DNA of 64,000 nt, from contig OY754469.1 of the NCBI GenBank assembly GCA_963575645.1, positions 16,572,001 through 16,636,000 of the forward strand, given 5' to 3'. The notes under the pieces were generated by a model. The model was not told where the DNA came from. It saw only the letters and a program-made list of their open reading frames with translations, and made no database searches. Positions 17,347 through 48,368 of the stretch are shown piece after piece. Source of the DNA: Xanthostigma xanthostigma. Lineage: Eukaryota; Arthropoda; Insecta; Raphidioptera; Raphidiidae. Within the stretch, counting starts at the first letter, position 1. Every line of letters starts with the position of its first letter. Both the position numbers and the translations under genes were made by a program.

Positions 17347-17428
17347 ATGATTATAATTATGAAAAAGGGTGTACATGTATGGTTCAGTGTCATTGGTTAC
17401 GTCATCATGGTTTTCCTTACTTTAAGGG
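17347..17428 (+). CDS. Ly6/uPAR-family GPI-anchored protein, exon 1 (signal peptide)
   Basis: First coding exon of a four-exon gene (17347-17428, 39141-39338, 43479-43706, 48148-48368; 729 nt, 242 residues). It encodes MIIIMKKGVHVWFSVIGYVI followed by MVFLTLR: a short basic N region and a hydrophobic core, a typical signal peptide directing the product to the secretory pathway. The ATG at 17347 is preceded by an in-frame TAA at 17341; a second Met follows at codon 5. The exon ends with a phase-1 donor, AGGG|GTGAGT. It joins in frame to the acceptor TTTTAATTCAG at 39140, completing a Gly codon. The 21.7-kb intron is full of transposons. The join is inferred from phase, splice signals and the resulting protein architecture. 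Confidence 0.7.
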
Positions 17429-17616
17429 GTGAGTATTTTTTTATCTATTTTAACTATAATATCTTATATGTACTTCAACATAAATCTTAAAAAGCTTAAG
17501 AATAATAAATCAGTTTGAATACGGAAACAAGGTTGGCATTATTGATAACCTGAAGAGAGTGTTACTAGAGTCAGAATTCAGATACTGAAAGAATGGAAAA
17601 TTCCTTTTATTACCTA

Positions 17617-17940
17617 CTAGCTGACCCGGCGAACTTCGTACCGCCTAACAGTCAATGAATGTCGTGTTAACTTTTAGCTAAACTTAGGATTTTATTAACT
17701 TATAAAATGAATAAAAAAAATTTATTAAGTTCAATAGTTTATTAGTTTCACCCGGATGCGATAGATAACGTATATTTTGTGTTATTGGAAAATTCTGCAT
17801 AATTGATGGTAACAGTTTACCTATGCGTGCTATATACAAACAGAACAAATAGGTTCTAAGAAATCCGTACATGAACTTATAAGCCATGTTCATCAATTAA
17901 TAAATCAACGCAAATGATCTCAGTTACCGAGCGTCTATAA
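17617..17940 (-). mobile_element. Helitron remnant, 3' end at 17617
   Basis: CTAGCTGACCCGGCGAACTT follows an A, the reverse of a Helitron 3' terminus ending CTAG before T. The 5' boundary is not clear; the right limit given is approximate. Located 190 bp inside intron 1 of the Ly6 gene. Confidence 0.5.
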
Positions 17941-19519
17941 TCTAAAATGTAATTTTTCCATTTATAAATAAAATAGCATTGGATATTTAAACGCTGGTAA
18001 ATTTCAATGGATTTTCGTGAAAGTGGAAAATCTCAGAACAAATTAAGTTAAACTGTTAGTTTTTTCAAACTCAAATGAAGAGCAACTGGTTTAAATCTAA
18101 TTTTGAATAGATAAAATGACTGATAAAATTTTAATAATATTTTGTATACAGGTAATAGGTTTATGCATATTAATTGATCCATTTTAAACACATCTATATA
18201 TCAGCATTTTTCTGTGTAGAAAGAAACATCTATAAAGATATTGATTTTGGCAATAAATTAATAATTAAGAAACGAATTGTATTTAAATAAAAAATAAACA
18301 TATTTAACGCTTTCATGTATGACTTAAGTTCAAAAAAATGAATACAGGGGTGGCCAGAAAATTAAACTTGACGATGCCATTTTTGTAACATTTTTGTTTC
18401 CTTAAAAGGTTATCGATAAACTACCTGTAATTAATGTAAGATGGTTTAAAATCAGGGAATCCCAAATCATTTTACTTTTACAAGTAGTTTAACGATCAAA
18501 TTCCCATTTAAAAAAAGTGAGTTTTTTCAATTCAATATAAGTATCTAATATTGTTCGAAATTCATTATCTTTTAATATCTTAGCTGTATAAGCTTCCTAG
18601 CAAATACTTTGTAAATATCCCTAATGTATGTTTGTTCTTCCCTAAAACTACTGAACCGATTTATACGATTCTTTTTGCATTAAGCTAGACATTTTTCAAC
18701 TTAGTGAAAGAACCATCGAAACTGGTTCAATTGTTTCTTTTTTAAGGTTAGTAATCAAATATCAAGAATGAGGTCAATTTATTATGTACAAAGTATATAC
18801 AAGGTGACATAGAACAAACTAGATTGCATAGCACCACGCGATAGAGGACCAAAAAATAATTTAAAAATTCCTATACACCAATGTTCTATTTTCTGTCTTA
18901 TAAAAACTTTCAATAAAAAGATAAATTAAAATATTACCAATACTGTACGACAATAAATCTTACTTTTCCTTATCACTAATTAGGTAAATAAGAAGCTATT
19001 TTTAAATTAGCGATAGTACAAATTAATTACAAATTAACTCTAATCTTACATCATTAGTACAACATAGTTTTAACAACAAGCATAATTTTGATTTCAAAAA
19101 TTACACTATTTTAATCCAAGAACTCAATTATTTCAAACATATTTTTCTAGAAATAATATTTATTAAAAAATTTACAAATAGTGTTAACAAACGCACAGAT
19201 ATAGAGAATTTGTCACATATATATATAGCAAATTAATTGACAAAATTTAAATAGCCTTGTACAATGTTTCTTGTTAAAACTTAACAAATGTTGTCCGTTT
19301 CGTATATCTATTAGTTCAGTATTATTCACAGCACAATATCAGAAAGGTTTGTTTTAATTTTGTGACAATAATTTTACATATAAAAGAAACTAACAATTTT
19401 AAAAATCTATCATTAACCAGTTTTTTATAAAAAATAACAATAACAATTAACAAGTTGAGGGACATCATGTTCACAATCCATCAACAACAATATACTGATA
19501 ACATGTGACAGTATTTGGA
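17941..19519. other. Ly6 intron 1, AT-rich, nothing recognised
   Basis: AT-rich intronic sequence without a supported gene, RNA or complete repeat. Confidence 0.5.
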
Positions 19520-19785
19520 AAGGGCGTAGATAGCGGGTGGGGGTAAAGAGGGTAATTACCCCGCCAGGATCATAATAATACAAAAATAAAACTGAAAATA
19601 ATACGAATACCTACCTGGCTAAAAAATAAAATTTAGAAATACTTCCTGAACAAAATTTGTAATTTGGTTTGGGAATTAATATTTTGCTTAACACCTTCCT
19701 TCGCGAGTATTCTTGTATGATATTAATAAAACTTTAAAAAAATACTAAGTTTTTTTGCTTAACTTTAAAAAATATCTACGCCCTT
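19520..19785. mobile_element. MITE, copy 1 (inverted relative to 42.6 kb)
   Basis: Ends are AAGGGCGTAGATA and its complement TATCTACGCCCTT. The interior (TATTAATAAAACTTT, ATTCTTGTATGATATTAATA, TACCTGGCTAAAAA) recurs in reverse at 42636-42909. ATTTGG occurs just outside both ends and may be part of the target site. Confidence 0.65.
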
Positions 19786-20129
19786 GGCATTTGGTGAGTT
19801 TCTAACATTGATTTCCACATAATTACATTTTAATTTAAAACAATTTTATAACAAAGAAAACTCTGAGAAGATGATACAAAACGTATCGAAACGTTAGCAT
19901 TAAATGCAAGTTTAAAAAATTTCAGTATTGCTCCATTTTCCATCCTTATGCCACGGATTTTTTTGCAAATACCTATCGTTATCACTTATTGTTTAGATAT
20001 TTGCAACAATCATAAATTAACTGTTATGCAATTTTATAATGGAATGTTTTGATTCGGTCTGGAACATATTCAACTATTCGCTTTTTTGGGGACTAAAGTG
20101 AGTCGTTTTTGTAATTATTTTATACTAAA

Positions 20130-20732
20130 ATAGCGGTCCCGCCCGGTTTCACCCGGGTGCAAAAGAATGAATGGGGAAGGAAGGGAGATGAGTACACACA
20201 TTCATCTTAGTTTACCGAGATGAATGTTGTGTCCAAATTTTATGATGATCGGAGTTACCGTTCAAAAGTTTTTGTCGATAAAGAGCAGTATTTAAACTTT
20301 TTTTAACTAATAATTTTTTTAAATGAATTAAATAAAATTAAAATAAATTTAAATGTAAGCCTTAGAAGAAAGCAATGTAAAAAATAAAAATATATTCACC
20401 CAACGTGGGGCTCGAACCCACGACCCTGATATTGACAGTCGCATGCGCTACCGATTGATCTACCTGAGGTTGTGTTCTTTCATCACTAATATGAGTATAT
20501 CTAGTTAGTGCATTTCACATGAATAGAAGCTTATTTTTGAGATACTTTTTGCAACATTTTTCATTAAAGCTCCGCTCCTAATGGTCGTAGCGTAATATTA
20601 TATAGCCTATAGCCTTCCTCGGTAAATGGGCTATCCAACAAAAAAAAATTTATTCAATTTGAACCAGTAGTTCCTGAGATTAGCGCGTTCAAACAAACAA
20701 ACAAACTCTTCAGCTTTATATATTAGTATAGA
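20130..20732 (-). mobile_element. Non-autonomous Helitron, copy B, with tRNA-like segment
   Basis: Reverse-oriented relative of copy A. Its 5' end TCTATACTAATATATAAAGC is at 20732, followed by T on the plus strand, and its 3' end GGTGAAACCGGGCGGGACCG with a mutated CTAG (CTAT) is at 20130. Most of the sequence matches copy A, but this copy keeps about 80 bp missing from copy A, including the 3' half of a tRNA-like segment. Confidence 0.85.
20400..20471 (-). other. tRNA-Lys-like sequence within Helitron B
   Basis: On the minus strand this contains TAGATCAATCGGTAGCGC (D-arm/A-box region), GCGACTGTCAATATCAGG (anticodon arm, anticodon position reading GTC) and a fully paired T arm GTGGG-TTCGAGC-CCCAC, then GTTGGGTG. 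From TCAGGGTCGTGGGTT onward it equals the conserved 3' half of animal tRNA-Lys as I remember it. The D stem and acceptor stem are mismatched, so it should not be a working tRNA gene, but A and B boxes for RNA polymerase III are largely present. Confidence 0.65.
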
Positions 20733-20814
20733 TAAATAGTAACAACCGATGCAGCTTACCACATCCTGTGCTCTTGATCGCAGAAGATAATTGATGGATA
20801 ATTAATTAATCAAG

Positions 20815-21290
20815 AGTGCTGACTGCTGGTCCAGAAAACTATATATCAACCACTCAGTCCACGAACTGTGCAAGTTAGTACAAGGAACTAGAATACTGGA
20901 TCGAGTGATATAAGAGATTGAGAGATAGCACAATATGCCCTAGGGCCAGTGGCGTAGCGTGGACTAATCTAGACATGGGCGCAGTCACATCAGCGAGGTC
21001 CTTTTCTTTCAGTAGGTACCTATTCCCAAGATCAGTAATCCTACCATATTTGTATGTAGGCTATATTTAGTAGAGTCTTTTAGGGGCTAATCGTACTATT
21101 TATTCAGCGTAGATGTAATATACGTAGTTCATGACGTTTGACTTCAAGTTAGCACGCAAGGAGGTCTCGCGTGAGGCCCTCATAAGCGCGAGGCCATGAG
21201 CAAGGGCCCGCTTCGCCCTCGCCTTGTTACGTCACTGCCTAGGGCTTAGAGGCTGTAGTGCTTCCGGTGGCAGAACGGCTCCCAAAGTTT
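20815..21290. repeat. Dispersed repeat interrupted by a hAT element
   Basis: 20815-20946 and 21238-21290 together match 44095-44245 in reverse orientation (GAGATTGAGAGATAGCACAA, CCCTAGGGC, GGTGRCA...CGGCTCCC). The copy at 44 kb is uninterrupted, so it acts as the empty site for the insert at 20947-21237. Confidence 0.75.
20947..21237. mobile_element. hAT MITE with perfect 8-bp target duplication
   Basis: Starts CAGTGGCGTAGCGTGG and ends CGCCTTGTTACGTCACTG-type (complement CAGTGACGTAAC). CCTAGGGC flanks both sides (20939-20946, 21238-21245). 291 bp, no coding sequence. Short CAGTG ends with an 8-bp duplication are diagnostic of hAT. Confidence 0.9.
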
Positions 21291-21581
21291 AAAAAAAATA
21301 ACAATCGCTAACTGATATAGATCACAACACCATATCAGATTTTTTCTGTGTAAGCATTAAATTTTCATTCACGATTATTTTAATAAAAATATAAACTGTT
21401 ACCAACGGTGAATTATTGTTTATCGCCTTATATTCGCAAACAATGCAAACAATATTCACACATTTATGGGAGTGGACAGTGTAAAAATACATGATAAATA
21501 CCTACATAATATTTGTGCTCAGTCAAAATCGATAACGACGCGCCATATAAAATTACAGAATCTACAATATTTATTTAACAA

Positions 21582-21780
21582 CTAGCTGTGCCCGCGGTTC
21601 CCGATCACGCGCATATCGAATTACTGTTGAGTGATTTTAAGTACATACTTTATTTTTGAATTGTTGAAATGCTTAATATTCGTTTCACTTGTAAAAGTTT
21701 CGTATTTTAAGAAAAGGATTTTTCAGGGCCCGATGAGAAGCGAACAGATGACTTTATTAATTAATAGATGTTAATTCGCT
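21582..21780 (-). mobile_element. Helitron remnant, 3' end at 21582
   Basis: CTAGCTGTGCCCGCGGTTCC directly after A is a typical lepidopteran Helitron 3' terminus in reverse. The far end is not identifiable, so the right limit is nominal. Confidence 0.5.
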
Positions 21781-22864
21781 GCGAAGGTTTGCATTATTGA
21801 GGCTCTACTGTACCAGAAAATGGCCATAAATCTTTACGCAACTGTAAAGTAGGTATTACAAATCATTCTTATATGCGACTCTAGCTATTTATAGATTTAT
21901 GCTACCAAAAGGGTGTTAGCCGGAACACAACACCCCTTGCTGTCTATCACGATCAACTTCCAGTAGAAGAATAAAATAGAATATAGTACGTGTATAAAAA
22001 ATAAAAATAACAAACGCGAACAAACTGATTAGCGATCAATAAAAATACTTAATAAATGAATGGTTTGTGAAACTTGTCAGCTTGTACTCTCAAGTTCATG
22101 TTAGGTATACAGATACTTAATCTAAATAAATAATAAAAATACTGTAAAGGAACATCGATCAGGTCTTACACATTTTCGATCAGGTGTTACGAATTTTCGA
22201 TCTGACGCGAGTTTAACATTTTTTACCCATTACAAAAAAAGTGTACAACGCCGCTAAAGAAGTTTTCACTTCAAAAATACTGAATTAATAATATCAAGTT
22301 TTTTAAAATTAATGGACAAACAAAATTATGCCTCACATATGTTGTGGGTTTCCAAGTTGCAAAAAGATTGTTTTAAAGGTCACGATAAAAAACAATTTGG
22401 GAATCACAGCAGGAATAGGGATTACAAGTGGGTATGCTAAAAATATTGTTAGACATAAAAGTGGACGATTCTTTAGGGTTCATTGGAAATTATAACAAAA
22501 TAAATACGTCATAGTTATTCGAAAAATTTCTTTGCTGTATTAAAGTTGAATGAACGCTTTTCTGAAGCTAGCAATATAATATTATGGAAATAAATGCTAT
22601 GTTTGCAGTGAAAACTGATCAAGACACGCACAAAATAAAAACAGGTCTGTTGGATACAGAAGTTTTCAGAATGGCAATTATTATAACCCAACAAGATTCT
22701 GAGGCGTTTCTCTCAAAATCCACTGGACAGATTTTAATAGAATTTACTTGTCAGTTGTAATCGTGAAGACTTCATATCTATAGTAAATTTTATATTATGT
22801 TTCTAATTTAAACTAGACACAATATAGTATCTGCAAAATTATTTACTTTTCGGGTCCCAAGATA
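21781..22864. other. Ly6 intron 1, nothing certain
   Basis: 22140-22215 holds a three-fold ATCAGGTSTTAC/TTTTCGATC motif. A 58-residue open frame at 22584-22760 (MEINAMFAVKTDQDTHKIKT...) looks compositionally normal but matches nothing I know. Confidence 0.35.
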
Positions 22865-23427
22865 CAGTAAGACCCCGCTTAACGCTGTTTCGTTTAGCGC
22901 TGTTTCGGTTTAGCGCTCTTTTATTTCAACCCGGGGATTCCCCGAAATTGTGCGCAGCGTATTACATAACATATCCGAAACAGTGTAGTTGTGTTTCTTG
23001 TTGCGGTGCTCTACGGACGCATTTTTATCATTTGAAAAATTTGTTGACATTATTATAAGTATAAATTTATATAATACTATAACGAGTAATAGAGTGACAA
23101 ATATTATGATCTTTAGTTTTTATCATGGGTGATAATGAAAAACAAGAAAAGAAAGCAACCAGACAAAGCATTTCACTGGAAACTAAAATGCAAGTGATTA
23201 GAAGATTAGATTCTGGTTTATATTGTTTTTATTTTTGTAAGAAATACATGTTTGGTTTTATTTGTGTTAAAAAAAAACATAATTATTAAATTTAATACCT
23301 AACCAATTTTCTATCCATCTTCCCCTAACCCCATTATTTACATGTTAAGATAGCATCGTTTAGCGCTGTTTCGCATTACGCTCTACTTTGCTGGAACGTA
23401 TCCCCCGCGTTAAACGGCGTATTACTG
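22865..23427 (+). mobile_element. Tigger/pogo-like element, internally deleted
   Basis: Bounded by CAGTAAGACCCCGCTTAACG and the complement of CAGTAATACGCCGTTTAACG, with TA on each side (22863-22864, 23428-23429). Subterminal repeats of TTTAGCGCTGTTTCG occur at both ends. The interior keeps only the start of the transposase. Confidence 0.85.
23125..23289 (+). pseudogene. Tigger transposase N-terminal remnant
   Basis: MGDNEKQEKKATRQSISLET then KMQVIRRLDSG is the start of the CENP-B/pogo-type helix-turn-helix DNA-binding region. After about 31 codons the sequence changes to hydrophobic, low-complexity residues and stops at 23289, marking the internal deletion. No catalytic domain. Confidence 0.7.
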
Positions 23428-23837
23428 TATATTTTTTCTTTCTCTATTAGTCCATTATTCATAGATACTCCATATGGAGATCTTTAAAAATTGTAGTTTG
23501 GGGTACCTCCTAAATATAAGTTCAATATATAACCGTTTTATTTGAAGTTAATCCGTTACACTCAAATTGATTGAAAGATATGTCTTACAAATTTAATAAA
23601 TGTTTACAAAATTAGAATATATATATTCTTATAATATATCTTTTACTTACATGTGGTCTGTGGACGAAATTGCACAGTATCTATAAAAAAGACAAGAATT
23701 ATTATATTATGAACATTCATTCAACATTACTGGCTCACAGTATTAGTGCTCCACAGAAAATATTTTTGTATATTATGAATCCTATAATTTTAAGACATAA
23801 CGTATATTTCAAGTTTAATAAAAAATAAGTAACGACT

Positions 23838-24850
23838 TTAATAATAATAATAATAATAAATTCCTTTAACTCCTAAGTGGAGCATAGGGCCTCTACGAAA
23901 TTTTTAAATCTAGTCCTATCTTTTGCCATATGTTTAACTTGAAGCCAGGTAGTTCCTTGTTCCATAACTTCTTCACGAACAGTTCTTCTCCAGGATATTT
24001 TTGGTCTGCCTCTTTTTCGGTATCCCTGTGGGACTTCCAATCCAAGGCTCTCTTTGCTATGTCGTCATCTGTCTTTCGTAGCGTGTGTCCTATCCAATTC
24101 CATTTTCTACGTTTTATAATTACACAGATTTGTTCAAGACATGCACGTTTCCAAAGTTCGTTGTTCGAGACGTGTTCATACCATTTCACCTTGAGGATTG
24201 TTCTGAGACATTTGTTTATGAAGATTTGCAGTTTAGTTGTTATGGCTTTCGTCACTTTCCAGGTTTCAGATCCATATAGAAGGACCGATTTTACATTTGA
24301 GTTAAAAATACGCAACTTCGTTTTTTCAAAAATCATACTTGAATGCCAAATACGATTTAAACTTCCGAACGCTTGGGATGCTTTTTTGATTCTACTGTCT
24401 ATATCCACTTCTGCTCCTCCATCATTGCTAATTATACTGCCCAGATAACAAAATTCTTCCACTTCTTTAACAGGTATATCTTTTATTACCAACTGTTGAC
24501 GACTCACCTTACCGATTTTCATAGCGACTGTCTTATCTATATTGATACGGAGACGTGCGACTTCTGCCTGTTCCAAGAGGAGATCTATTTTTGCTTGCAT
24601 ATCCGCGCTATTATTTGCCAAAAGGCAGACATCATCTGCATAGTCTAGGTCTTCCAGTCTTCCAGTTAATATCCACCTAATTCCTCTTGGTGTACTAATA
24701 ACCTTTTCCATTATATAATTAATTACCAACGTAAATAGCATTGGCGAAAGTATGCAGCCTTGTTTTACTCCAGAATTAATGCCAAAATGTTCTGATAATT
24801 TCCTTTTATGAGCTACTCTGCATCGCATATCTCTATACATAATACAATTC
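23838..24850 (-). mobile_element. 5'-truncated non-LTR retrotransposon (LINE) copy
   Basis: A LINE in minus orientation, ending in a (TTA)n tail (plus-strand TAA repeats at 23838-23860) after the coding region. The 5' break is near 24845, inside the reverse transcriptase. Endonuclease and fingers are lost, as usual for incomplete reverse transcription. It lies antisense in intron 1 of the Ly6 gene. No TSD could be fixed. Confidence 0.85.
23893..24840 (-). pseudogene. LINE reverse transcriptase, C-terminal part, frameshifted
   Basis: Contains reverse-transcriptase blocks INSGVKQGCILSPMLF and LEDLDYADDVCLLA (the YADD active-site box), then the C-terminal region with EEFCYLGSIISNDGG, SVLLYGSETWK, FINKCLRTIL and KRRKWNWIGHTLRK, typical of LINEs that often appear as jockey- or craniofacial-development-like proteins in annotations. 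Between about 24025 and 24045 the frame breaks: in the main frame the end is nonsense, whereas another frame continues with RKRGRPKISWRRT and ends FVEALCST just before the stop and tail. One indel therefore disables this copy. Clade not certain. Confidence 0.85.
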
Positions 24851-25230
24851 CATAATAAGGTTTCGAATAACGACTTTACGTATAATTAATTAATTATTAT
24901 AGCAATAGATAAAAACGACCTGTAAAGAAATAAAAATCATTAATTATAATGAATTTTACGGCATAATATAATTGCGTAATATATTATAGAATTTTTCAAT
25001 CCTTGTTACTTTATTGATTTTCAGTTTGAAATTTACGTACTAAAATTTGTCGATTTTGCAAACCCTAGAAGAGGAATCCATAAAAACTATAATCTAATTT
25101 ACGTTGACGGATCTTGTTTAAAGTTTCATATACAGTGTGTTCACCTAAAGTGGTAACAGTGAACAATTCGTGTATCCTACTAGTATACAAAAAAAAAACG
25201 TGTATATAGTTTTTTGTTCAAATCCGGATT
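24851..25230. other. Ly6 intron 1, AT-rich
   Basis: No gene. 25195-25230 carries the AAATCCGGATT block shared with the elements at 2.4 and 52.6 kb. Confidence 0.4.
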
Positions 25231-25366
25231 TGGATCTTCTTCAGAAATATCTAAAAAATATAAAAATTAATTAGTATTAAGTTATTTATTAACTAATCGA
25301 TTAGTTAATAAATAACTTAATACTAATTAATTTTTATATTTTTTAGATATTTCTGAAGAAGATCCA
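25231..25366. repeat. Perfect 136-bp palindrome
   Basis: Two 68-bp arms, TGGATCTTCTTCAGAAATAT onward, are exact reverse complements with no spacer, centred at ATCGAT (25296-25301). I compared the arms base by base and found no mismatch. It sits next to sequence of the GATCCGGA inverted-repeat family and is probably the junction of two head-to-head ends. Confidence 0.9.
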
Positions 25367-25900
25367 CTTGCGGTCAAGAAAATAACTTTATAAATTGGCA
25401 ATTCCAAATTTCCTGCAGAAAGAATAAGTCATTAAGTCATCTAACAATGTCGAATGCAATCTAACAGATTTTTCCAAACATCAAAATAATATGGCACTAC
25501 AAATTTTCTTATTACTAAAGCCAATATTTGTCATCATTTTTTATTTAAATCAACATTGTTGATGCGATGGTATTTTTGTTGCGCAGTGAAAAGCGAAGGT
25601 GGTATGGAGAAGTTCCTTAAAAACGATTACGGAGTGCTGTTGATGCCAAACTGTATAAACTTTATATTGTGTATTTTAAATAAACCTAATAGAAATTTTC
25701 AAATTTTTTTTGACCGCATGTTGGGTCACTCCTAACATTATTTTCTTTTAATAATATCGATTAACCGCAAGTGGGACGACAATTGTTCTGACCGCAAATG
25801 GCACGATCGCAAGTGGCACTAAATCAGCTGCCAAATTTTAAGTTTGGACAAATGGCGCCAGATTTGAAAACTGAATATCGCATTCGCGATCATCGGCGAT

Positions 25901-26089
25901 CTACCCATCGATTTGATACAATAATAACTACAGTGCTAGTGCGTGTTAACAGTTAGTTGTGACAGGGAGGCTTACTGGCCGACCCTTAATACCACTCGAC
26001 AGTGATCTTATCAATTATGATCTCAGCTGTGAATGGCCCTAGTGTGCCGACCCGGCTTTACTGGATTAAAAAAAAAAAAAAAAAAAAAA
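25901..26089 (+). mobile_element. Short polyadenylated retrocopy with 12-bp TSD
   Basis: The 12 bp ATCATCGGCGAT occurs at 25889-25900 and again at 26090-26101, enclosing a 189-bp insert that ends in about 22 A residues. This is the signature of LINE-mediated retroposition. The insert (CTACCCATCGATTTGATACA... GTGTGCCGACCCGGCTTTAC) has no open frame and no A/B boxes I can see; it could be a SINE, a truncated LINE end, or a retroposed non-coding RNA. Confidence 0.8.
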
Positions 26090-26101
26090 ATCATCGGCGA
26101 T

Positions 26102-27514
26102 AGATATTCGTTTTCGCATTCGAGAATACTTAAACATTGACAGTCTAGGTGTTACATCACTAGCATATACAAATAAAAAATACATAACATTTAAAAAATA
26201 TATATATAAAATGTATGTAAATTAAATTTAATGAGAGGCACTCGACTGTGATTTGCATGTTTCGTATTTTCAAAAACACTTCATGTCTGTGCAAACTCTT
26301 CACGTACGCTAAATAGATTATCGCGGTGATCTATGTTTAGAACTTTTAATTAATTAGTGTTCAGCGTCATATATAATAATACAATTAAGTAGAAAGCCTT
26401 ATGCAGTGATGCAACGTGTCCATGTGGCCTACATTTACTAAACAAATAAAGTGAACTTAAAACATTGAATTTTTGATTATAAAATTTGTCTTGTCCAATC
26501 GGCAAAAGGGTTAAAATTACAAGAAAAGGTGAGACGATAAATAAGAAAAAACGAATGATAGGTACAATAGGGTCGTCCCACATTTTTTTTTAAGTAAAAC
26601 TTCTTGACTTGGGGAGTAAGCTGGTGAATGTCTGACGAGAGATTTACGGAAGTGTGATCGGGCGAGGCAAAGTTGAGAGGGAGATACCTATAAGTTAGTG
26701 AAGATATAAAGAAGATGACAAATACTTCACTGACTAGTGGCGCCATCAGATGGGCGAAACAAATACTTCACAGGCTACTGACGTCATCGGGTGGCCGAAA
26801 ATATAATCAGTACTAACAATAGAATGACACTTACTTTACTTGCCAGTGGCGCTATCGGGTGACAGAAAAAAGTTTTGTAAACCTACTTTAAATAATATTT
26901 CATAAAGATTTACGCTTAAAATCCAACGAGAGTCAAGTAATTGCAATGTATTACTTTTGTTTTCATTATTTTTATGTTTATATTTCTTTCTTCTTACATT
27001 AAACTGTTTCTTTCGTTCTTAAACAATTTTATAAATTAATATTTTGTTCAATACATTAAATATTCTACGTTTAAAGTGAATCAAAATTGTAAAATCATTT
27101 TAAAGTTCATATTTTGTGAATTTTCGGGTGAAGTTTTACTCTAATCGTGTGGTCTAAAACTCACTCGTTTTTTTTTTTGAGGGATGGATTTTACAATAAA
27201 AATAGATCATGAAACAATTCAGCTACTTTTCGTGTCTGTATAGCGGTACTAAAATGACCCTTTTCCGCACTAAATTTACAAATAATAAATATGTATTCCA
27301 TAAAAACTGGTATGTTTTCAGCAAGATAAGAAATACTGGAAGTTGGGTACCAACAGTATATATGTATATTCAAAATTGATCCACCCTTTTTCAAGTGATG
27401 GTATACCTATTACAAACAAATAGACACAAAAATTCTCTAAACAAGTTTTTCCATCTATAGGTTATACAAAATATCCAAAAACCAATGACGTCTCGTTCGA
27501 ATTTTATAGATAAA
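26102..27514. other. Ly6 intron 1 with degenerate short repeats
   Basis: 26722-26870 contains three degenerate copies of a CTAGTGGCGCCATCAGATGG-like unit. The remainder is AT-rich with no supported gene. Confidence 0.4.
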
Positions 27515-27877: not shown

Positions 27878-27913
27878 TTAGTAGTTTAGTCAATGAGTGC
27901 TCATAAGGGGCAT

Positions 27914-29517: not shown

Positions 29518-29525
29518 TTTTCTAG

Positions 29526-34391: not shown

Positions 34392-35299
34392 GATGGATTA
34401 CAATCTTTGGTGCAACAAAATTAAAGTAATATATGGAATTTTACAAGCTTTCTTTCTATCTCTATTCTCTGAGGTCTGATAAATAATAGTGTGAAATGAC
34501 GTCAGTAACATGGGCAAACGCCCACAAACAAATGTAGCGTCATAGTGTACCTTCTGTTAAGAGACAATAAACAATCACTTTTGTTAACATTCGAACTGTC
34601 ACCGCGCACGAAACCCATCTTCGATACACACATCGTGTGAAGCGAACACATAAATGCCATCATGAAACTCAGCGCCACAGCACGCTTGAAACCTAGCGGC
34701 AAAACCAGTCTCGTGTGCCTTTACGGTCTCCGTAAGGGCGCCGTCGATTGCAGTGACAGTGGACGGTAGAGATGTCGACAAAGTAACGATACGATGCGAA
34801 ACTACTCGTTACTCTAGAATACCCGAAGTAACGATCACCGATTTGAAAAGATGGATTACAATCTTTGGTGCAACAAAATTAAAGTAATATATGGAATTTT
34901 ACAAGCTTTCTTTCTATCTCTATTCTCTGAGGTCTGATAAATAATAGTGTAAAATGACGTCGGTAACATAGGCAAACAAATGTAGAGTCATAGTGCCCGT
35001 TCTGTTAAGAGACAATAAACAATCACTTTTGTTAACATTCGAACTGTCACCCCGCACGAAACCCATCTTCGATACACACATCGTGTGAAGCGAACACATA
35101 AATGCCATCATGAAATTCAGCGCCATAGCACGCTTGAAACCTAGCGGCAAAACCAGTCTCGTGTGCCTTTACGGTCTCCGTAAGGGCGCCGTCGATTGCA
35201 GTGACAGTGGACGGTAGAGATGTCGACAAAGTAACGATACGATGCGAAACTACTCGTTACTCTAGAATACCCGAAGTAACGATCACCGATTTGAAAAGT
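34392..35299. repeat. Tandem duplication of ~455 bp
   Basis: Unit 1 (34392-34849) and unit 2 (34850-35299) begin GATGGATTACAATCTTTGG and are nearly identical; unit 2 lacks a few bases around CGCCCACAAACG. Each contains an inverted copy of the GTGACAGTTCAAA repeat family and the left end of a hAT element (TAGAGATGTCGACAAAGTAA at 34767 and 35215). Confidence 0.92.
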
Positions 35300-35879: not shown

Positions 35880-35887
35880 GTGGACGG

Positions 35888-38491: not shown

Positions 38492-38951
38492 CAGAGTTGT
38501 CAACACCTAAAAATCTTTCCCCCCAACCACAAGTTGAAATATCCCTAAAAATCCCCTAAAAAAATAATTGTTTTACTGTGAACAAATTATATATCTATCG
38601 TCTTACGATAGACCGCGCTCGGAGCAGAATAGTGAATACCGTCTTCAAAAAGGCAAACTTTGTTGAAGATAATTTAACAATAAAAAATTATTGTACTCTC
38701 AATTTTGCTATTGAAGGAGACCGAGCGCCACATGATGTTATTATAATACTTATGTTATTAGGACTGACTACTTAGTAAACAGATATTTAACAATGAGTTG
38801 GTTTTGTAATTCATCTAATGTTTGATAGAAAAATAAAAAGTTTTTTTTGTGTCCCTAAAATTACCGTAAAAATATAAAGGCCCTAAAAAAATCCCATTCT
38901 ACATTTTATCCCCCCAAATTTAGGGGAAAAACACCCAAATTGGTAACCCTG
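38492..38951. mobile_element. hAT-like element, degraded
   Basis: Left end CAGAGTTGTCAACACC, right end GGTAACCCTG, i.e. short CAG...CTG inverted ends. Flanking 8-mers GTCGGTCC and GCCGTTCC agree at six positions. Subterminal CCCTAAAAATCCC motifs recur inside. An open frame at 38578-38775 has no recognisable domain. Confidence 0.5.
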
Positions 38952-39140
38952 GCCGTTCCTCCGTGGGCTGGTCCGGTTCGGTTCACGTAGAGGCATGATG
39001 AGTTCATTTACTTTATTTCGAACACTTGTTTAACTTTTTAGGTCCCAGATCGACCCTGGGACTTCCTGTACAATTTTTTGTATTGAGGTAGGTGATCGAT
39101 AATTATACTATTATTTAAATATTGTATTGTTTTAATTCAG

Positions 39141-39338
39141 GTACGGCCAGTCATCACAACTTGCACAACATGAACGGCTACGAAAATAGTTATGGTGAAG
39201 ACAACAGCCACACGATCGGCTACAACAATGGTCCAGTGAGATATAACAACGGTTACAACGATCATAACGATGATCACAATACGAACGGTGAGCACGATAA
39301 CACCGACATGATGGTTGGACATCAGAAAAATCATCGCA
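39141..39338 (+). CDS. Ly6/uPAR-family protein, exon 2 (His/Asn/Gly/Asp/Tyr-rich cassette)
   Basis: 198 nt with an acceptor (TTTTAATTCAG|GTACGG) and donor (CGCA|GTATGT), both phase 1. It adds TASHHNLHNMNGYENS, YNNGPVRYNNGYNDHN, DDHNTNGEHDN and VGHQKNHR: a low-complexity, His/Asn/Asp/Tyr-rich segment with no hydrophobic core, placed just after the signal peptide. It has no resemblance to the Ly6 fold. Because the length is a multiple of three and both flanking introns are phase 1, skipping this exon would keep the frame. The valine/isoleucine-rich frame on the other strand here is a shadow of this exon. Confidence 0.75.
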
Positions 39339-39570
39339 GTATGTCTTATTTATATATTTAACTTATATATAATGTGTTTACCTTATATATATAAGTCAAA
39401 TAGTGCATGGACAAACATTTTTCATTCTCAAAACTATATTAGTGCAATTTGTTTGACTGGCTTTCAAATAAAAATGTACTCTCACAGTACGTGTAAATAT
39501 CTCGTGTGTGTTAAGTGTCCAGCTAGCATGTACTGAGTATAGGCCAGGCATAATAGGGTTCGAACAACAA

Positions 39571-41933
39571 AAAAATTAGTTACAGCAATCCGACATCGGG
39601 ATATTGTAGAAAAAGGTATTCTAAAAGAGGGAAAAATAAATCGAACAGTCTGCTGCTATCCGGGGTGGAATGGGGTGGCTTTTTAGGGGTTGAAATCAGT
39701 TTTTGAGATTTCTGGCTAAACGATGCATTCTATCGAAAAAAGTTAAATGTAAAAGTTGTAGATAATAAAAAGATCTACAACTTTTGTACTAACCATTTTT
39801 ACCCTAACCTCAAAATTTTACGAAAAAAATGCAAAAAACCGATTTTTTGGTTTTTAATTTTTTTTTCGAAAACAAAAAATTAATTGAGCCCAAACTTTGC
39901 CAAAAGATACCTTTTGGTATTATAAATATGTAGTAATTTTTTTGAAAGGAAATATTTTAAGGTTTTTTTAAAATTCCATTTTTTCGACAAAAAAATGAAA
40001 TTTTCAACGAAAATCCTACCTAAAACTACGCGACCTACAGAGTTCAAATTTGGCACACCTACTCGTTGTTACGTCTACTTTCAATTAGTAGTGAAAAAAA
40101 GGTACACGCAATGGAAAAAATGGCGGGAAAATTGAAAAAACCGAAGAAATGACTTTTTTGTGGTTTTTGGCATATACATCGTCGAACAATCGTTATTAAT
40201 TAATAAAATCATTATAATTTTCATGTTTAATCTTTGATTATTGTACAGAGCTACTTTTCATACGATAAAAAATTTACATACAATCATAATAATCAAACAA
40301 TAGGTAATGTAGTAGATCTACAATGATATATACGTATTTTGCAGATAAGAGTGGTTAAATCTGGAAAAGTGGTGGAACAGCTCCGATTTCAAAATTTATT
40401 TTTTTCCTTGATCCTTGACCCTCAGGAACATTCATCACCACTAACCTCCGCCTCACTCCGAAAATTGGAAAAAGTAGGGTGGTTTTAACCCTCTCAAAAG
40501 CACCCGCCAGTGAAACAGTGGAAAAACACTTTGAAAAATAAAAATTTTGTCTTAAGAAGCGGCCCTCGGAGGTTTTCGAGGTCGTTGATTACGAATCCGA
40601 GGTCTGTAATCAAGTAAGGGTAGTTTCAACCCCTCAAAACCACCCCCAGTCGTCACTGTAATGAAAAAAACAGTATAAAATAATATTTTGTCTTAAAAAT
40701 CGTCTCTCGGGGGTTTTCGAGGTCGCTGATTAGGAATTCGAGGTCTGTAATCAAGTAAGGGTAGTTTCAACTCCTCAAAACCACCCCCAGTCGTCACTGT
40801 AATGAAAAAAACAGTAAAAAATAATATTTTGTCTTAAAAATCGTCTCTCGGGGGTTTTCAAAGTCGCTGATTACCTTCACTTGATTACAGACCTCGGATT
40901 CGTAATAAGTGACCTCGAAAACCCCTGAGAGCCGATTTTTAAGACAAAATTTTTATTTTTCAAATTTTTTTTCCACTGTTTCACTTGCGGGTGCTTTTGA
41001 GAGGGTTAAAACCACCCTATTTTTTCCAATTTTCGGAGTGAGGCGGAGGTTAGTGGTGATGAATGTTCCTGAGGGTCTAAGGAATCAAGGAAAAAAAGAA
41101 TTTTTGAAATCGGAGCTGTTCCACCACTTTTCCATATTTAAACACTCTTATCTGCAAAATCCGTATATATCATTGTACATCTACTACATTACCTATTCTT
41201 TGAATATTATGATTGTATGTAAATTTTTTTATCGTATGAAAAGTAGCGCTGTACAATAATCAAAGATTAAACATGAAAATTATAATGATTTTATTAATTA
41301 ATAACGATTGTTTGACGATGTATATGCCAAAAACCACAAAAAAGTCATTTTTTCGGTTTTTTCAATTTTCCCGCCATTTTTTCCATTGCGTGTACCTTTT
41401 TTTCACTACTAATTGAAAGTAGACGTAACAACGAGAAAGTGTGCCAAATTTGAACTCTGTAGGTCGCGTAGTTTTAGGTAGGATTTTCGTTGAAAATTTC
41501 ATTTTTTTTTTCGAAAAAATGGAATTTTAAAAAAACCTTAAAATATTTCCTTTCAAAAAAATTACTACATATTTATAATACCAAAAGGTATCTTTTGGCA
41601 AAGTTTGGGCTCAATTGATTTTTTGTTTTCGAAAAAAAAAATTAAAAACCAAAAAATCGGTTTTTTGCATTTTTTTCGTAAAATTTTGAGGTTAGGGTAA
41701 AAATGGTTAGTACAAAAGTTGTAGATCTTTTTATTATCTACAACTTTTACATTTAACTTTTTTCGATAGAATGCATCGTTTAGCCAGAAATCTCAAAAAC
41801 TGATTTCAACCCCTAAAAAGCCACCCCATTCCACCCCGGATAGCAGCAGACTGTTCGATTTATTTTTCCCTCTTTTAGAATACCTTTTTCTACAATATCC
41901 CGATGTCGGATTGCTGTAACTAATTTTTATTTT
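39571..41933. mobile_element. 2.36-kb fold-back element in Ly6 intron 2
   Basis: The left arm (about 39571-40616) and right arm (about 40876-41933) are inverted copies of roughly 1.05 kb with very high identity, from ATTAGTTACAGCAATCCGAC outward to the inner GACCTCGGATTCGTAAT/ATTACGAATCCGAGGTC. The 260-bp centre is made of 141-bp tandem repeats. No transposase frame and no clear TSD. Superfamily unknown. Confidence 0.92.
40617..40875. repeat. 141-bp tandem repeat at the fold-back centre
   Basis: AGGGTAGTTTCAAC recurs at 40617 and 40758 (period 141), with CCACCCCCAGTCGTCACTGT in each. The unit also resembles the inner end of the left arm, so it probably arose by duplicating the arm end. Confidence 0.8.
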
Positions 41934-43478
41934 TTTTTTCAATTTTCTCTGCTATTTTTACTGGTCTAGTACTCTCATAGAATGTGTAAACAGTGTTTTA
42001 CTGTGTGTGCATAGTTCAGTGAAATACCTGACGTGCGCGCACTAGCTTTGCTGCGCATGATAGACGTATATCCGCTTGGTTTTTCGTCACGTACATTTTC
42101 AGCGATAAAATAATATTTTGGAGGAAGGTCGATTTTGGATGTTTACACAACAATAAAATATGTTTCTTTTCGTTATACGAGTCCAATATTTGTTAAAAGC
42201 TAGAAAGAAAATAAAACCATATCAAGGTCCCTCCTTTATAGTTTCGTTTATTAGAATTGATTATTCTTTACTAATTATATGAAGTGAGTTTATAAAAACG
42301 GACACCGTTGTTGGAGAGACTTCAAGGTAATAAGATGCACAAAGTCTATTTAATAAGAACCGTAATCAAACTAAGGAGAAAAAAACGAAACTGGAACTGG
42401 TAATATATAGGAATTAAAATATTCTTTTAAAATTTATGAATACGCAAGTTTTGAGAATAGTCAATTACTTTCTGTACAGTGCAAGTTTGCATAAACGGTG
42501 ATAAAGTGGTTGCCAACTATTCAACAAGTGAAAATTACATTCAATTTAAAAAACGTATTAAAGAATAATTTTTTTTAAGTTCGTAGTCGTACACTAGTTT
42601 CATCAAATGCAATATTTTGTCGGCATTTTTTTGATGTGCACCCAAGAGCGTAGATATTTTCTGAGGGGGGGGGGGTAAAGTTTTATTAATATCACACAAG
42701 AATACTCACGAAGAAAGGTGTCAAGCAAAATATGATTTCCCAAACTAATTTTACACATGCCCTTTTCAAAAAGTTTAAAGTATTTCTAAATTTTAATTTT
42801 TAGCCAGGTATTCGTAATATTTTCAGTTTTATTTTTTTATTATTATAATCCTGTGGAGGGGGCGTAATTACCCCCTTTACTTCCCCCGTATCTACGTCTT
42901 TGTGTGCACCTGTACACACCTGTACCGGTGCCTGACATTGAAACTTCTGCTAGAGTTACTCAATGCGATGTCACGGAAGTGATGTAAAGCTCCGCTGTTA
43001 GGGACCGCCCATAAAATACGTATACGCAAAAGGGGAGTGCAAAAGAAAATCGCCTCTCATATAAAGCTAGCCTAACGTGTCGATTTGTGATGAGAAGGGA
43101 GGAAAGGATCCAAACAAATGTACCTAACGTGTCGCGTATTAACACAAAATACTATATTTGTGTAATTGTTACAAATAACCATAAAAATCATCGTTCATGG
43201 AAAGGGGGGCAGACCGATTTGGTGACGTATTATTAGGTAGGGGGTTGACAAAAATGTGATACAGCGGGACAAGGAGGGAGGGTGGAATAAAAAACGCGTG
43301 AATTCCGAGTGACGTTTTTTTATGGATGACCCCTTAACACTCATTGGTAATGTGAGGTACAGTAAAAATAATATATAGCTGTCACCGTATTCGAGTCTGA
43401 ATGTTTACACATCCCTTGAGAGTACAGAGGACTCACTGTTGTTTGCTTTTATTTTCAATGTATCGTAAATTTATCCAG
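41934..43478. other. Remainder of Ly6 intron 2
   Basis: 42636-42909 is the reverse copy of the 19.5-kb MITE, bounded by GTGCAC and CGTAGATA inverted ends. 43195-43340 is G-rich (GGGGGGCAG, AGGGAGGGTGG) and may be a transposon end. Otherwise nothing recognised. Confidence 0.5.
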
Positions 43479-43706
43479 ATAATGGCCACCACCGTCACGA
43501 TCACCACAACGCTCGTCAACACTACGCTGGTCCCACTAGGACCATTTCGTGCTACAAATGCAACAGCGAGTTCGACCCAAGGTGCGGTGATCCGTTTGAT
43601 CCGTACACAATAGGCATCGTCAACTGTTCAATGAGACCGCCGCCACCTCACTTCACCGATCCCGAAGACATGGAACCGAAACTATGCAGGAAAACTGTAC
43701 AGAAAG
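43479..43706 (+). CDS. Ly6/uPAR-family protein, exon 3 (N-terminal half of three-finger domain)
   Basis: Begins after AAATTTATCCAG. The split codon becomes Asn, then NGHHRHDHHNARQHYAGP continues the His-rich linker. The Ly6 domain then starts with the diagnostic ISCYKCNSEFDPRCGDPFDP, followed by IGIVNCSMRPPPPHF and EPKLCRKTVQK. Five of the ten domain cysteines lie here. VNCS is a possible N-glycosylation sequon. Donor AAAG|GTAACG, phase 1. The spacing CxxC...C and the FDPRCGDPFD text are typical of the insect Ly6 family; I do not assign a Drosophila orthologue. Confidence 0.88.
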
Positions 43707-44969
43707 GTAACGCTTCATTCCGTTTCTTAAACGAGATTTTATAACATCGGAATTAACTCTAAAACGGAATTTTTGGCTACCTTAAAAAAAAACATCCGGC
43801 CAAGTGCGTGATAGCCACACGCATGCGATAGGGTTCCGTTGTGTTCATAAGACGTGTTTATTAGCCAATTATTAATCGCATTCGTTGGTTGACAAATATC
43901 ATACCCTAACCTAGAAGCGCATCGTTGCGACATGTTGATACTGTTTCGGAGATTATTAATTTAAAAAAGTCGAGTATCCGTTAGTTATTATTTGCACTAT
44001 TAAAATCACTTTGAGGCCTTCCTAAAAAACCAAAATTTTGGCATGTACAATGACATCGAACGGTATTTTTTTGAACGTTGATATAGGCTTTTTTTTAACG
44101 GGAGTCGGCTTGTCACCGGGAACGCCGCAGCCCCTAGGGCTTATTGTGCTATCTCTCAATCTCTTATATAACTCGATTCGGTATCCTCGTTCCTTGCACT
44201 AGCTTGTGCAGTCCGTGGACTGGCTGATTGATATAATCTTCTGGACTCATTGATATAGGTTTACATAAATATTTAATTTTCGCCACATATCACAGTTAAC
44301 CGAACAATAACAACAAGGAAATGAAGAATTTGCTTTACAAAGTGTTTCGAATTAAGATATTTAAAAAAAATATACAAACAGTCTTAAATTAACAATGATG
44401 CACAAAACCAAAAAAGTATATTATTCCGAAAGTTGACGCATTCAAAACATCAATGCAAGTTTCGCTACACATGTTAGCATCGTCTGAAACACGATCAGCT
44501 TTAAAAAAAAGTGCGCATCATATGTGTATTAAGACAGAACGACCACAGGGATACGTAATTTCAATATGGTCGTTACATGAGCGGACACCCTGTATAGATA
44601 TAATAATATAGAAATAGCATTTTGCTTTGCTGGCCTGGTGCCCACAATCGATACCCGGTTAAGGCACGAAATCATAAAAGTGATAAATATAACATAGATA
44701 GAGTTTGTTAAACGAGGCAGCCGTCTAACAACGTATCGGCTTATGTATATATTCAATTTTTTTACTGCATTTTCTTCGCGATGCCAACATTGCCAACTCC
44801 TAATAAAAATAATAAATTCAAACTGTCACCAATCAGCAACTAACCGTTGCAGTGTTACAATATTCAAGCTTGCACCTCCACCACTTATGTTACCCGTCCT
44901 TTCCACCACATACATCGTCTGAACGGAATAACTTATACATACATAATAAAAAATATTTTTAACAAAAAA
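43707..44969. other. Ly6 intron 3, first part
   Basis: 43790-43840 (CCGGCCAAGTGCGTGATAGC, TAGGGTTCCG) is a partial copy of the 12.1-kb repeat. 44095-44245 is the uninterrupted copy of the repeat that a hAT element entered at 20.9 kb. No other feature supported. Confidence 0.5.
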
Positions 44970-45455
44970 ACTGAACCGACTTCAAAAAAGGCACTAAAAA
45001 GTAAAAAATAATTGCGTATTGAAATGTTTTGGAGTCGGTGTAGTTCTCAGAATAGATTTCATTTGGGCTGACACCGACTCCAAAACATTTCAATAAGCAA
45101 TTATTTTTTACTTTTTAGTGCCTTTTTTGAAGTCGGTTCAGTTTTCTTGTTAAAAATATTTTATTTTTCTCTTTTTAGTGTTAATCTAACACTAAAAATC
45201 GGTGAACATACATAAAAAACATTATGCATGCCTTTGAAATTTGAGAGTTTCCCTCGATTTCTCCGGGATCCACCATCAGATCCTGACTTGGTTCCGATGG
45301 GACCACATCGGAAGTGCACTCTTTCGAATAAAAAAAAATTTGAAAATCGGTCCATAATAATTGACGGAGAAATCGGTGAACATACATTAAAAAAAAAATA
45401 TATATATACAGACGAACATAGAACCTCCTCCTTTTTGTTGAAGTCGGTTAAAAAG
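44970..45455. repeat. GAAGTCGGTT repeat family, copy 2
   Basis: Starts at AACTGAACCGACTTCAAAAA, contains an inverted pair around TTTTGGAGTCGGTGT, the block GAAATTTGAGAGTTTCCCTC and ends GAACCTCCTCC, GAAGTCGGTTAAA. Blocks are in the same order as in 9597-10360, with different internal deletions. Confidence 0.65.
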
Positions 45456-45600
45456 AGATCATTTTGCAAGATAGAATTTGGTATACGAGTACATGTCTAG
45501 AAAAATATTATTGGAAGGGCAAGATTTGTAAAAGTGTCGATGGAGCAGTATTATTTTTAATGATCTGCATAAAAAAAAAATTAGTAGCCGTCGTAGGACG

Positions 45601-45982
45601 CCTGGGAGCGTATTCTCAGCTTTTTTCGTTATAATCGAGAATTTGTTACATTGCTAGGACTCATTATTAGTCGTCACATGGTACTCAACTTCGACTAGTA
45701 GATCCAAAAAGCTCAATGCGCATGTGCGCAAGACCACTGTTTTTATTAAATAAATAACCTCTATAAGATTTTATATAATTTTTTTGCATCTAGTTGTAAT
45801 AACTAGATGCAAAAAAATATAGAGGTTATATTATATTTAATAAAAATACGTGGTTTTGCGTTGAATTTTTAATGGATCTACTATAGTATCGCTTAAAATC
45901 CCCAGCTCTACCGACTAATAATAACGAATGCTATATAACGAATTCGCTATTATAACGAAATAGCTGAGAATACACTTCCTGG
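45601..45982. mobile_element. MITE with GTATTCTCAGC inverted ends
   Basis: CCTGGGAGCGTATTCTCAGC at the left and the complement of CCAGGAAGTGTATTCTCAGC at the right, each followed inward by TTCGTTATAA. A second inverted pair (TATAACCTCTAT, GCATCTAGTTGTAATAACTA, GATGC) forms a hairpin in the middle (about 45748-45832). Non-coding. Confidence 0.75.
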
Positions 45983-48147
45983 CAGATGTGAAATATATAC
46001 ATTTAAGCAGGATTCTAGTAACTAAATTTAGCCCTGTGACTAAATTTCACCCTGTAACACAAAATGTGTATACAATTAGTGGTGAACGTCTCAAGCAAAC
46101 TATAGTCGCAGACGCAGTACGCAGCTTGTGTGAGTTGTGACGACTCACATAGAGAAGCAACGAGTGTATACCTACAGTATATGCGTGCGCATACATAAGG
46201 AAGTCGAGAGCGATAAAGCGTAAAGGGGATATAAGATAGCGTGATTCCATTTCCGTCACGGCATGGTTTTGCTGCCAAACGCGCTAATAGATGTTTCACA
46301 TCAAAAATATGCTTCTTTTACAGAAAATATATACGGTCATAATATAAAATTTTTGTCAGCCTAGATTTTCAGACGTTCTAATAATTATCTATCACGATAA
46401 TTGATTCAAATTATAGTAATTAACAATATCAGAATTGCATATGACAATCAATTTAAGTTAAATTAATTAAGAAACCACTCACCGTAATGAAACAGTTTAA
46501 TATAATACTATATCCAAGGAACAATTATCAACCCCTTATACATAATATACTGAGTCTGATCTCCAGGATACCCACTGGGGATTAATTGGGCGTTATAACT
46601 TATGCTTCACACGATCCCACCTGGCAGTAGGTTAGACTCGCTCGCTCGGGAAAACATGTGTCAGCATAGTTCTCTTAATTTCTACGTGGTCACAAGGCAA
46701 ATTACAACAAATCGCTTCAATCATAAATAAAATATTGGACCCAAACGTCTTACATACGACCAAGTTTCAAATATATGCATATTTTTTAATATCTTGTTCT
46801 ACACCACACGGAAAACAAATTAATTTAATCTATTTTAAATAGACAAGGCATTTTCTAATATAGGTACATGCTGTATCACAAAATACGGTATTCGACACTA
46901 TAAAAAATAAATTATTAAATTATGAGATGTTGATGATTTATAGGGTAAGAAATCAGAAATTATCGGTTTGTAATCAGAAAAACTCAAAGTTGATTTATTA
47001 TTACAATTTTTGGCATGTTAAAAATATCTACCCGCCATGATGGTTTGAAGTGTGACGTCAGACTTGTAGTAAACACACATATTGGATATATGTATGTTCA
47101 CTAAAAGTCAAACATACACGACACATACGCGCGAGTAAACACTAAACGAACCTCGTGTAAACGATACATAGCCTTATTTTCACTGGTTTGTATACCTACT
47201 ACAAAAATGACGTCACAACAGGTAAACATGGCAAAGTTTTGAGTACTATTTTATCCTATAAAAAGATTACATTTAAGCGAGATAAGGGAACGTTTTAAGA
47301 CAATTTAAAATAAGAATCAAATAGCCTATTATGAACTTGAGGAAAACGCTGTAGCGCAAATCATTAATGATCAGTGATTGCTTTGCCCTCTTACACCCAA
47401 GTATTTCATTTATAACTTTCTCGCACTACTCATTTTATTTATGTCACCTTTGCCGCACTCATAAATGTTCTATTTTGTCATGGCCATGTTCACCGAGCAT
47501 AAGTAGTTATTTATTCGGTTCATTTGTTCTTCAGGTTGCTATTTCTCCGAATAAATAGCGATAATTCAATTCACCAAATATAATTATGTTTACTGCAGGT
47601 ATAAATCTATTCTGTCTTACTTCGAGGATATAAATATTTATTCGCCTGATAAAATAATAATGGCTGTCACATAAATCATAATACCTAACCTATAAACGTG
47701 GGTTATTATATTTACAGTTGCTTTTGTGAATTTATTTATGTGTTGTTTATGAACCATTTGTGAAGTGTATAGTTGTAAAACATCTAAGTTAGTGGAAGTT
47801 TTGTGTGCAGTTGGGTTTAACATTTTTATTTTATGAAACTTTTTTTTGACGTTTACACTAACGCCATCGGTCGGATTTTTGGGTAAAAGTCAAAATGTTC
47901 CACAAAAAGAGCAAGGAGTATAGTGCAGTGTATATTAATTATTCTTTAACTAATTTTTCTACCTGATATTTTACTTGGTGAATTGAAAGTAAATTTTTTT
48001 TCAACGAATAAATTTATTCCAAGATTAGTAACTTCTATCTTTAATATAGTGTTCGGTGAACATGGGCATTAGTCCTGTGATACAGTCTGTGTTACACCAC
48101 CGTAAGATTTATTCGTCGTTAATGTTTAATTGATGTTCAACTTTCAG
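45983..48147. other. Ly6 intron 3, remainder
   Basis: 46040-46280 is slightly richer in G+C (GTCACGGCATGG, GCGTGCGCATACA) but shows no protein-like frame. The rest is AT-rich and unremarkable. Confidence 0.5.
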
Positions 48148-48368
48148 TTTATGGCAAGTTTCGCATAATCCGCGACTGCGGTTACCTGACAAGCGACCGC
48201 GACGATAAGCAGTGTGTCAAACGTTCCGGAACACACGACGTGTTCGCATTCTACTGCTCATGCACCAAGTCGTTATGCAACACGGCTTCAGTGCCAGTAC
48301 TGCCCGCCCGTTTAGCGTTATTAACTGCCGGCCTCACACTTCTACTAACACTGCGTTCGAACGCGTAA
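48148..48368 (+). CDS. Ly6/uPAR-family protein, exon 4 (C-terminal half of domain and GPI signal)
   Basis: Begins after TGTTCAACTTTCAG; the split codon becomes Val, giving VYGKFRIIRDCGYLTSDRDD then KQCVKRSGTHDVFAFYCSCT and KSLCN. This supplies the remaining five cysteines, ending with the conserved C-N pair of the three-finger fold, for ten in all (five predicted disulfides). After CN comes TASVPVLPARL and a hydrophobic tail (ALLTAGLTLLLTL) ending RSNA, a GPI-attachment signal; the mature protein should sit on the outer leaflet of the plasma membrane. Insect members of this family act in septate junctions and in ion-channel or receptor regulation, but the role of this one cannot be read from sequence. 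A polyadenylation signal lies at 48710. Confidence 0.88.

What the first reader, a model, noticed from the sequence alone, without database searches (positions are those of the whole stretch)
17347..48368. A four-exon Ly6 gene spread over 31 kb
A signal-peptide exon, a His/Asn-rich exon and two exons carrying a ten-cysteine Ly6 domain plus GPI tail join in frame with no stop. Every intron is phase 1 and every border is GT/AG. The full protein is 242 residues. Single-exon scanning misses it because the first and last exons have no long frame of their own in the right phase.
Basis: partly seen in the sequence, partly recalled or inferred. Interest (0 to 1): 0.72.

Follow-up and report, generated by a model that had tools for sequence, protein, structure and literature searches.

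The report
Snakefly Ly6 gene with extra exon
This is an insect Ly6-type (three-finger, probably membrane-anchored) gene in four exons in a snakefly genome, ordinary except for an extra histidine- and asparagine-rich front arm, an arrangement that two mammalian Ly6 genes also show.

Summary
The four stated exons join to a 242-residue protein with no internal stop, GT/AG borders and phase 1 at all three joins. Exons 3 and 4 give a full Pfam QVR (quiver-type Ly6) domain, E 2.5e-17, with ten cysteines. Own-genome Ly6 paralogs share the layout: four were rebuilt, three with the middle intron at the same aligned place. Exon 1 ranks first among upstream candidates. It is the least certain part: the same scan gave clear first exons for only 4 of 8 paralogs. 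Exon 2 is the best symmetric internal exon of the locus if it ends at 39287; with the stated end, 39338, it ranks fourth of nine, although exon-like GC runs to 39338. The genome is not lepidopteran but the snakefly Xanthostigma xanthostigma, chromosome 6. The added 88-residue His/Asn-rich arm is the one unusual feature. A review describes the same plan, an extra exon for a disordered arm before the Ly6 exons, in human GPIHBP1 and SP-10. A real and largely ordinary gene; transcript evidence could not be consulted.

The parts
17347..17428 (+). Exon 1: start codon(s) and signal peptide (MIIIMKKGVHVWFSVIGYVIMVFLTLR), ends in phase 1
   Evidence: Ranked first; donor GGG|GTGAGT 11.8 bits; only itself found in the genome (that search skips simple repeats and very common words); in-frame TAA at 17341. 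No transcript evidence.
17359..17361 (+). Alternative in-frame start codon (MKKGVHVWF...)
39141..39338 (+). Exon 2: symmetric 1-1 exon; begins with a likely signal-peptide cleavage site (GTA|SHH, inferred), then His/Asn-rich
   Evidence: fourth of nine 1-1 candidates with this end, first with the end at 39287; GC 0.44-0.45 inside, 0.16-0.20 in the 51 bases on either side; no other copy found in the genome
39287..39288 (+). Stronger internal phase-1 donor (ACG|GTGAGC); possible alternative end of exon 2
   Evidence: 9.4 bits against 4.0 for 39338; in-frame 225-aa product
43479..43706 (+). Exon 3: end of the His-rich arm and first half of the Ly6 domain (cysteines 1-5)
   Evidence: QVR 35.5 bits alone; joined 64.1 bits
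48148..48368 (+). Exon 4: second half of the Ly6 domain (cysteines 6-10), GPI-type hydrophobic tail and stop
   Evidence: QVR 27.0 bits alone; joined 64.1 bits
48710..48715 (+). First AATAAA after the stop (possible poly-A signal)
   Evidence: such hexamers are common by chance here (14 AATAAA/ATTAAA places listed to 51500)

Best explanation
It is a protein-coding gene of the insect quiver-type (QVR) Ly6 family. The product enters the secretory pathway by the exon 1 signal peptide, which is probably cleaved just after the exon 1/2 join (GTA|SHH). It folds a ten-cysteine three-finger domain and is probably GPI-anchored after the final CN motif, with the hydrophobic tail removed. At the cell surface, or during secretion, it would hold one partner protein with its fingers, as Drosophila Ly6 proteins act on channels, receptors or septate-junction components. 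The 88-residue His/Asn-rich segment would be a disordered arm in front of the domain that adds a second, loose contact with the partner or binds metal ions. The plan resembles GPIHBP1, where an extra exon 2 codes a disordered arm. Shown: open joined frame, QVR match, ten cysteines, phase-1 layout shared with paralogs. Inferred: use of exon 1, cleavage, anchoring, fold, disorder, partner, metal binding.
For: Exact join. QVR E 2.5e-17, 64.1 bits against a cut-off of 27.3; halves score 35.5 and 27.0 bits alone. Two rebuilt C9 paralogs given a signal-peptide exon also pass the QVR cut-off. Exon 1 ranks first by 2 x hydropathy + donor score; 0 of 100 dinucleotide shuffles of 1-39140 reached hydropathy 2.7 with donor 10. 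The rival 9404-9470 lies in a repeat with 39 other long matches among the 40 candidates scored of 941. Extra-exon precedent: GPIHBP1 and SP-10 (PMC6600238, passages; PMC3339605, passages).
Against: No transcript or other-species insect sequence could be used. The first-exon scan gave a clear nearby candidate for only 4 of 8 paralog places, so the true first exon could be missed or lie outside the window. The opposite strand of the window, taken as a rough control, holds 3 candidates, the best with hydropathy 3.12 and donor 9.1, not far below exon 1; the shuffle limits were set after seeing exon 1. The 9404 rival is more hydrophobic (3.38 against 2.73). Exon 2 with its stated donor ranks below a probable chance candidate in intron 3 (45986-46129). 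Profile search of the PDB: no chain at E<=1. The arm is only mildly acidic (10 Asp/Glu of 88, net -4 without His), unlike GPIHBP1.
Confidence: 0.8

Rival explanations
1. The Ly6 gene is real but its first exon is another one, in 1-39140 or upstream of the window; 17347-17428 is a chance open frame with a good donor.
For: Intron 1 would be 21.7 kb, against 249 and 793 bases in the two paralogs joined to a signal exon. The scan gave no clear candidate for 4 of 8 paralog places, and the window's opposite strand holds 3 chance candidates.
Against: Exon 1 has a near-consensus donor, A at -3 and an in-frame stop just upstream; the 9404 rival is in a dispersed repeat.
Confidence: 0.17
2. Exon 2 usually ends at 39287, or is a cassette used in some transcripts, so the main product is 225 or 176 aa. 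In SP-10 the arm length varies by alternative splicing in exon 2.
For: Donor 39287 scores 9.4 against 4.0 bits; all variants stay in frame.
Against: GC stays 0.45 in 39288-39338 and drops to 0.16 in the next 51 bases, as if the exon ran to 39338. Skipping exon 2 removes the GTA cleavage site (inferred).
Confidence: 0.3
3. The locus is a pseudogene, or the exons are unrelated chance frames.
For: No expression evidence.
Against: Both Ly6 halves match one family profile end to end without stop or frameshift, split where paralogs are split.
Confidence: 0.03

Closest known systems
Pfam PF17064 QVR (quiver family u-PAR/Ly-6-like domain), insect single-domain Ly6 proteins
   Same: Full-length profile match, ten cysteines ending in CN, hydrophobic tail, phase-1 layout
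   Different: 88 residues and an extra exon before the Ly6 start, where the rebuilt paralogs have about three residues
Own-genome Ly6 gene at C9:9186814-9185772 (minus strand)
   Same: 39% identical in the Ly6 domain, same middle intron position and phase
   Different: Three compact exons (introns 249 and 413 bases), no His/Asn arm
Mammalian GPIHBP1 and SP-10
   Same: Extra exon coding a disordered N-terminal arm in front of the Ly6 exons; GPIHBP1 has four coding exons; SP-10 arm length varies by splicing in exon 2 (PMC6600238 and PMC3339605, passages)
   Different: GPIHBP1 arm is strongly acidic (21 of 26 residues) and mammalian; here His/Asn-rich, 10 acidic of 88. No sequence comparison was made; a parallel plan, not kinship
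Drosophila quiver/sleepless
   Same: Family name of the Pfam model
   Different: A gene that looks like quiver itself lies at C9:2201787-2207690 (likeness to fly quiver is recalled)

Membership tests
Insect Ly6/QVR (PF17064) | Profile match over the curated cut-off | tested here: met
   64.1 bits against 27.3, profile positions 1-86 of 86
Insect Ly6/QVR (PF17064) | Ten cysteines with terminal CN | tested here: met
   Ten cysteines at 118-213; CN invariant in the five-sequence alignment
Insect Ly6/QVR (PF17064) | Symmetric, mostly phase-1 exon borders | tested here: met
   wording from PMC6600238 (passage)
Insect Ly6/QVR (PF17064) | Signal peptide and GPI attachment signal | tested here: inconclusive
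   Signal peptide by a hydropathy scan only; the tail judged by eye; no trained predictor run
Insect Ly6/QVR (PF17064) | Three-finger fold | not tested
PDB by sequence gave one weak hit (E 0.19) and none with the profile
quiver/sleepless orthologue | Being the quiver-like gene of this genome | tested here: inconclusive
   Another gene looks like quiver (C9, 2.20 Mb), but the comparison with fly quiver is from memory; no fly sequence was searched
GPIHBP1-like Ly6 with an extra arm exon (plan, not kinship) | Separate exon coding a low-complexity arm between signal peptide and Ly6 exons | tested here: met
   Exon 2, 1-1 phases, on the predicted model only
GPIHBP1-like Ly6 with an extra arm exon (plan, not kinship) | Strongly acidic arm | tested here: not met
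   10 Asp/Glu of 88 residues

The most novel reading that the evidence does not exclude
An insect Ly6 gene has, independently of mammalian GPIHBP1 and SP-10, gained an exon for a disordered arm in front of the three-finger domain. Here it is His/Asn-rich, possibly metal-responsive, and its length may be tuned by two in-frame donors.
Probability: 0.2. Interest if true: 0.45.

Novelty: new member of a known kind. Interest (0 to 1): 0.22.

Why it matters
It adds a snakefly member to the insect Ly6 family. If the arm exon is confirmed, it would be a parallel in insects to the extra arm exon of mammalian GPIHBP1 and SP-10, showing how a symmetric phase-1 exon can add a disordered arm without disturbing the domain. 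Otherwise the interest is modest.

Tried and rejected
Pfam PF00087 in the own genome: no hit, no control rang, uninformative. Lepidopteran chorion PF01723: no hit, no control rang, uninformative alone. Rival first exon 9404-9470: in a dispersed repeat. PDB by sequence: one weak hit, TGF-beta receptor II, E 0.19; none with the profile. Relatives in viral contigs and genome contigs: none confirmed. These are viral and prokaryote collections, so this says nothing about other insects. Structure prediction was not attempted because the protein is spliced. Papers: listings on Ly6 with 'histidine-rich' or 'N-terminal extension' showed no insect case; the second led to the GPIHBP1/SP-10 passages. Raphidioptera with Ly6: 0 papers. 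No promoter claim is made; the upstream DNA is AT-rich. The idea that the downstream frames at 61676-62889 belong to a JmjC-type gene was recalled; Pfam gave no hit at E<=0.01, so it is dropped.

Full report
Observation. The four exons were cut out and joined: 729 nt, 242 residues plus stop, no internal stop, every border GT/AG, every join in phase 1. The protein has ten cysteines, at residues 118-213. Pfam gives QVR (PF17064), E 2.5e-17, residues 116-214, profile 1-86 of 86. In the whole-genome QVR search the two Ly6 exons score 35.5 and 27.0 bits separately; joined they score 64.1.

Which organism. The window is contig 6, 16572001-16636000, of a genome of 623,323,696 bases in 28 contigs. C1, C6, C7, C9 and C10 are 84,212,599, 50,868,170, 50,701,026, 46,350,982 and 40,920,740 bases. 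The mitochondrial contig is 17,745 bases with tRNA order Ile-Gln-Met; that ditrysian Lepidoptera usually have Met-Ile-Gln is recalled. A genome note on the snakefly Xanthostigma xanthostigma gives 623.30 Mb, 28 scaffolds, chromosome lengths 84.21 (1), 50.87 (6), 50.7 (7), 46.35 (9) and 40.92 Mb (10), and a mitochondrion of 17.75 kb (PMC11871431; abstract in the listing, passages). The match is as good as certain.

Paralogs. One search lists 20 QVR places, two of them the window's own exons; 14 of the other 18 lie on C9. I viewed 14 C9 places and rebuilt four genes, with borders picked by eye; the rest were not attempted. In 3 of 4 the middle intron falls at the same aligned position (window QK|V, paralogs QK|A, NE|V, NE|I); in the fourth it lies a few residues on, beside an alignment gap. 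Identities to the window Ly6 domain are 39, 29, 29 and 30%. The rebuilt paralogs have about three residues between the exon border and the Ly6 start; the window gene has 88, with 18 Asn and 15 His.

Exon 1. Scans for ATG-to-donor exons ending in phase 1 with a hydrophobic core rank 17347/17359-17428 first by 2 x hydropathy + donor score. In 100 dinucleotide shuffles of 1-39140, 0 held a candidate with hydropathy >=2.7 and donor >=10 bits, limits set after seeing exon 1 (2.73, 11.8); weaker candidates (2.4, 4) occur at 1.4 per shuffle. The opposite strand of the window gives 3 such weaker candidates, the best at 3.12 and 9.1. On the + strand upstream, 9404-9470 is more hydrophobic (3.38, donor 5.7) but lies in a repeat: of 941 candidate places 40 were scored, and 39 besides the window matched over most of the first 244 bases. 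Another, 11920-12004 (2.82, 3.97), appears at looser limits. As a control, the looser scan gave clear nearby signal exons for 4 of 8 C9 Ly6 places and ambiguous ones for the other 4. Exon 1 is likely but not proved.

Exon 2. Among 9 symmetric phase-1 internal exon candidates between exons 1 and 4 (limits: acceptor 4, donor 3.5 bits, 90-300 bases), exon 2 with the donor at 39287 ranks first (17.9), a probable chance frame at 45986-46129 second (13.1), exon 3 third (12.55) and exon 2 as stated fourth (12.49). The donor limit lies just below the stated donor's own 4.0 bits. GC is 0.44 in 39141-39287, 0.45 in 39288-39338, 0.16 in the next 51 bases and 0.20 in the 51 before the exon. The exon therefore seems to run to 39338, with 39287 a possible alternative. 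Exon 2 begins with GTA|S, a likely cleavage site (inferred), in the place where the two paralogs joined to a signal exon read GAA|IEC and VLG|IKC; this favours direct union to a signal-peptide exon. The His-rich run continues into exon 3. A search of the genome with the arm found only exon 2 itself and the start of exon 3.

Mechanism. From a review and two fly papers (PMC6600238, PMC3058042, PMC10264074; passages), fly Ly6 genes code proteins predicted to be GPI-anchored, and known members act on septate-junction assembly, potassium channels or nicotinic receptors. The likely role here is of that kind; the partner is unknown. The same review says that GPIHBP1 and SP-10 are the only two human proteins of this kind with an extra exon for a disordered N-terminal segment, and that SP-10's segment varies in length by splicing in exon 2; GPIHBP1 usually has four coding exons (PMC3339605, passages). 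In GPIHBP1 the acidic arm stabilises lipoprotein lipase in a loose complex. The snakefly arm has the same place but another composition (10 acidic of 88, net -4 without His), so a second loose contact or metal binding is inference.

Verdict. A correct and careful gene call of a known family, with an extra arm exon that is worth a transcript check.

Noticed in passing
window 1252-1872 (-): Frame matching Pfam ATP_bind_1, E 2.9e-66; probably a GPN-loop GTPase (name recalled), a neighbouring gene.
   Followed up: partly
window 23893-24885 (-): Reverse-transcriptase frame (RVT_1 and DUF6451) of a mobile element inside intron 1.
   Followed up: partly
window 9091-9493 (+): hAT C-terminal dimerisation fragment in a dispersed repeat; a signal-like frame at 9404 lies in the same repeat.
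   Followed up: yes
window 34392-35298: Tandem duplication of a 448-base unit, 2.0 copies, 95% match.
   Followed up: no
window 13501-14100 and 51101-51800: GC-rich stretches (GC to 0.58 and 0.55; CpG o/e mostly above 1), possible promoters or repeats.
   Followed up: no
window 9841-10134 and 45161-45496 (-): Frames with similar peptides in both places suggest two copies of one repeat.
   Followed up: no
L045 (C6:1195571-1196020) and L046 (C2:16906869-16907126): COX1-like fragments on nuclear chromosomes, perhaps mitochondrial DNA copied into the nucleus; the TGA codons alone do not show decay.
   Followed up: no
contig C9, 9.18-9.35 Mb (L030, L034-L039): Cluster of Ly6/QVR places; four genes rebuilt in part.
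   Followed up: partly
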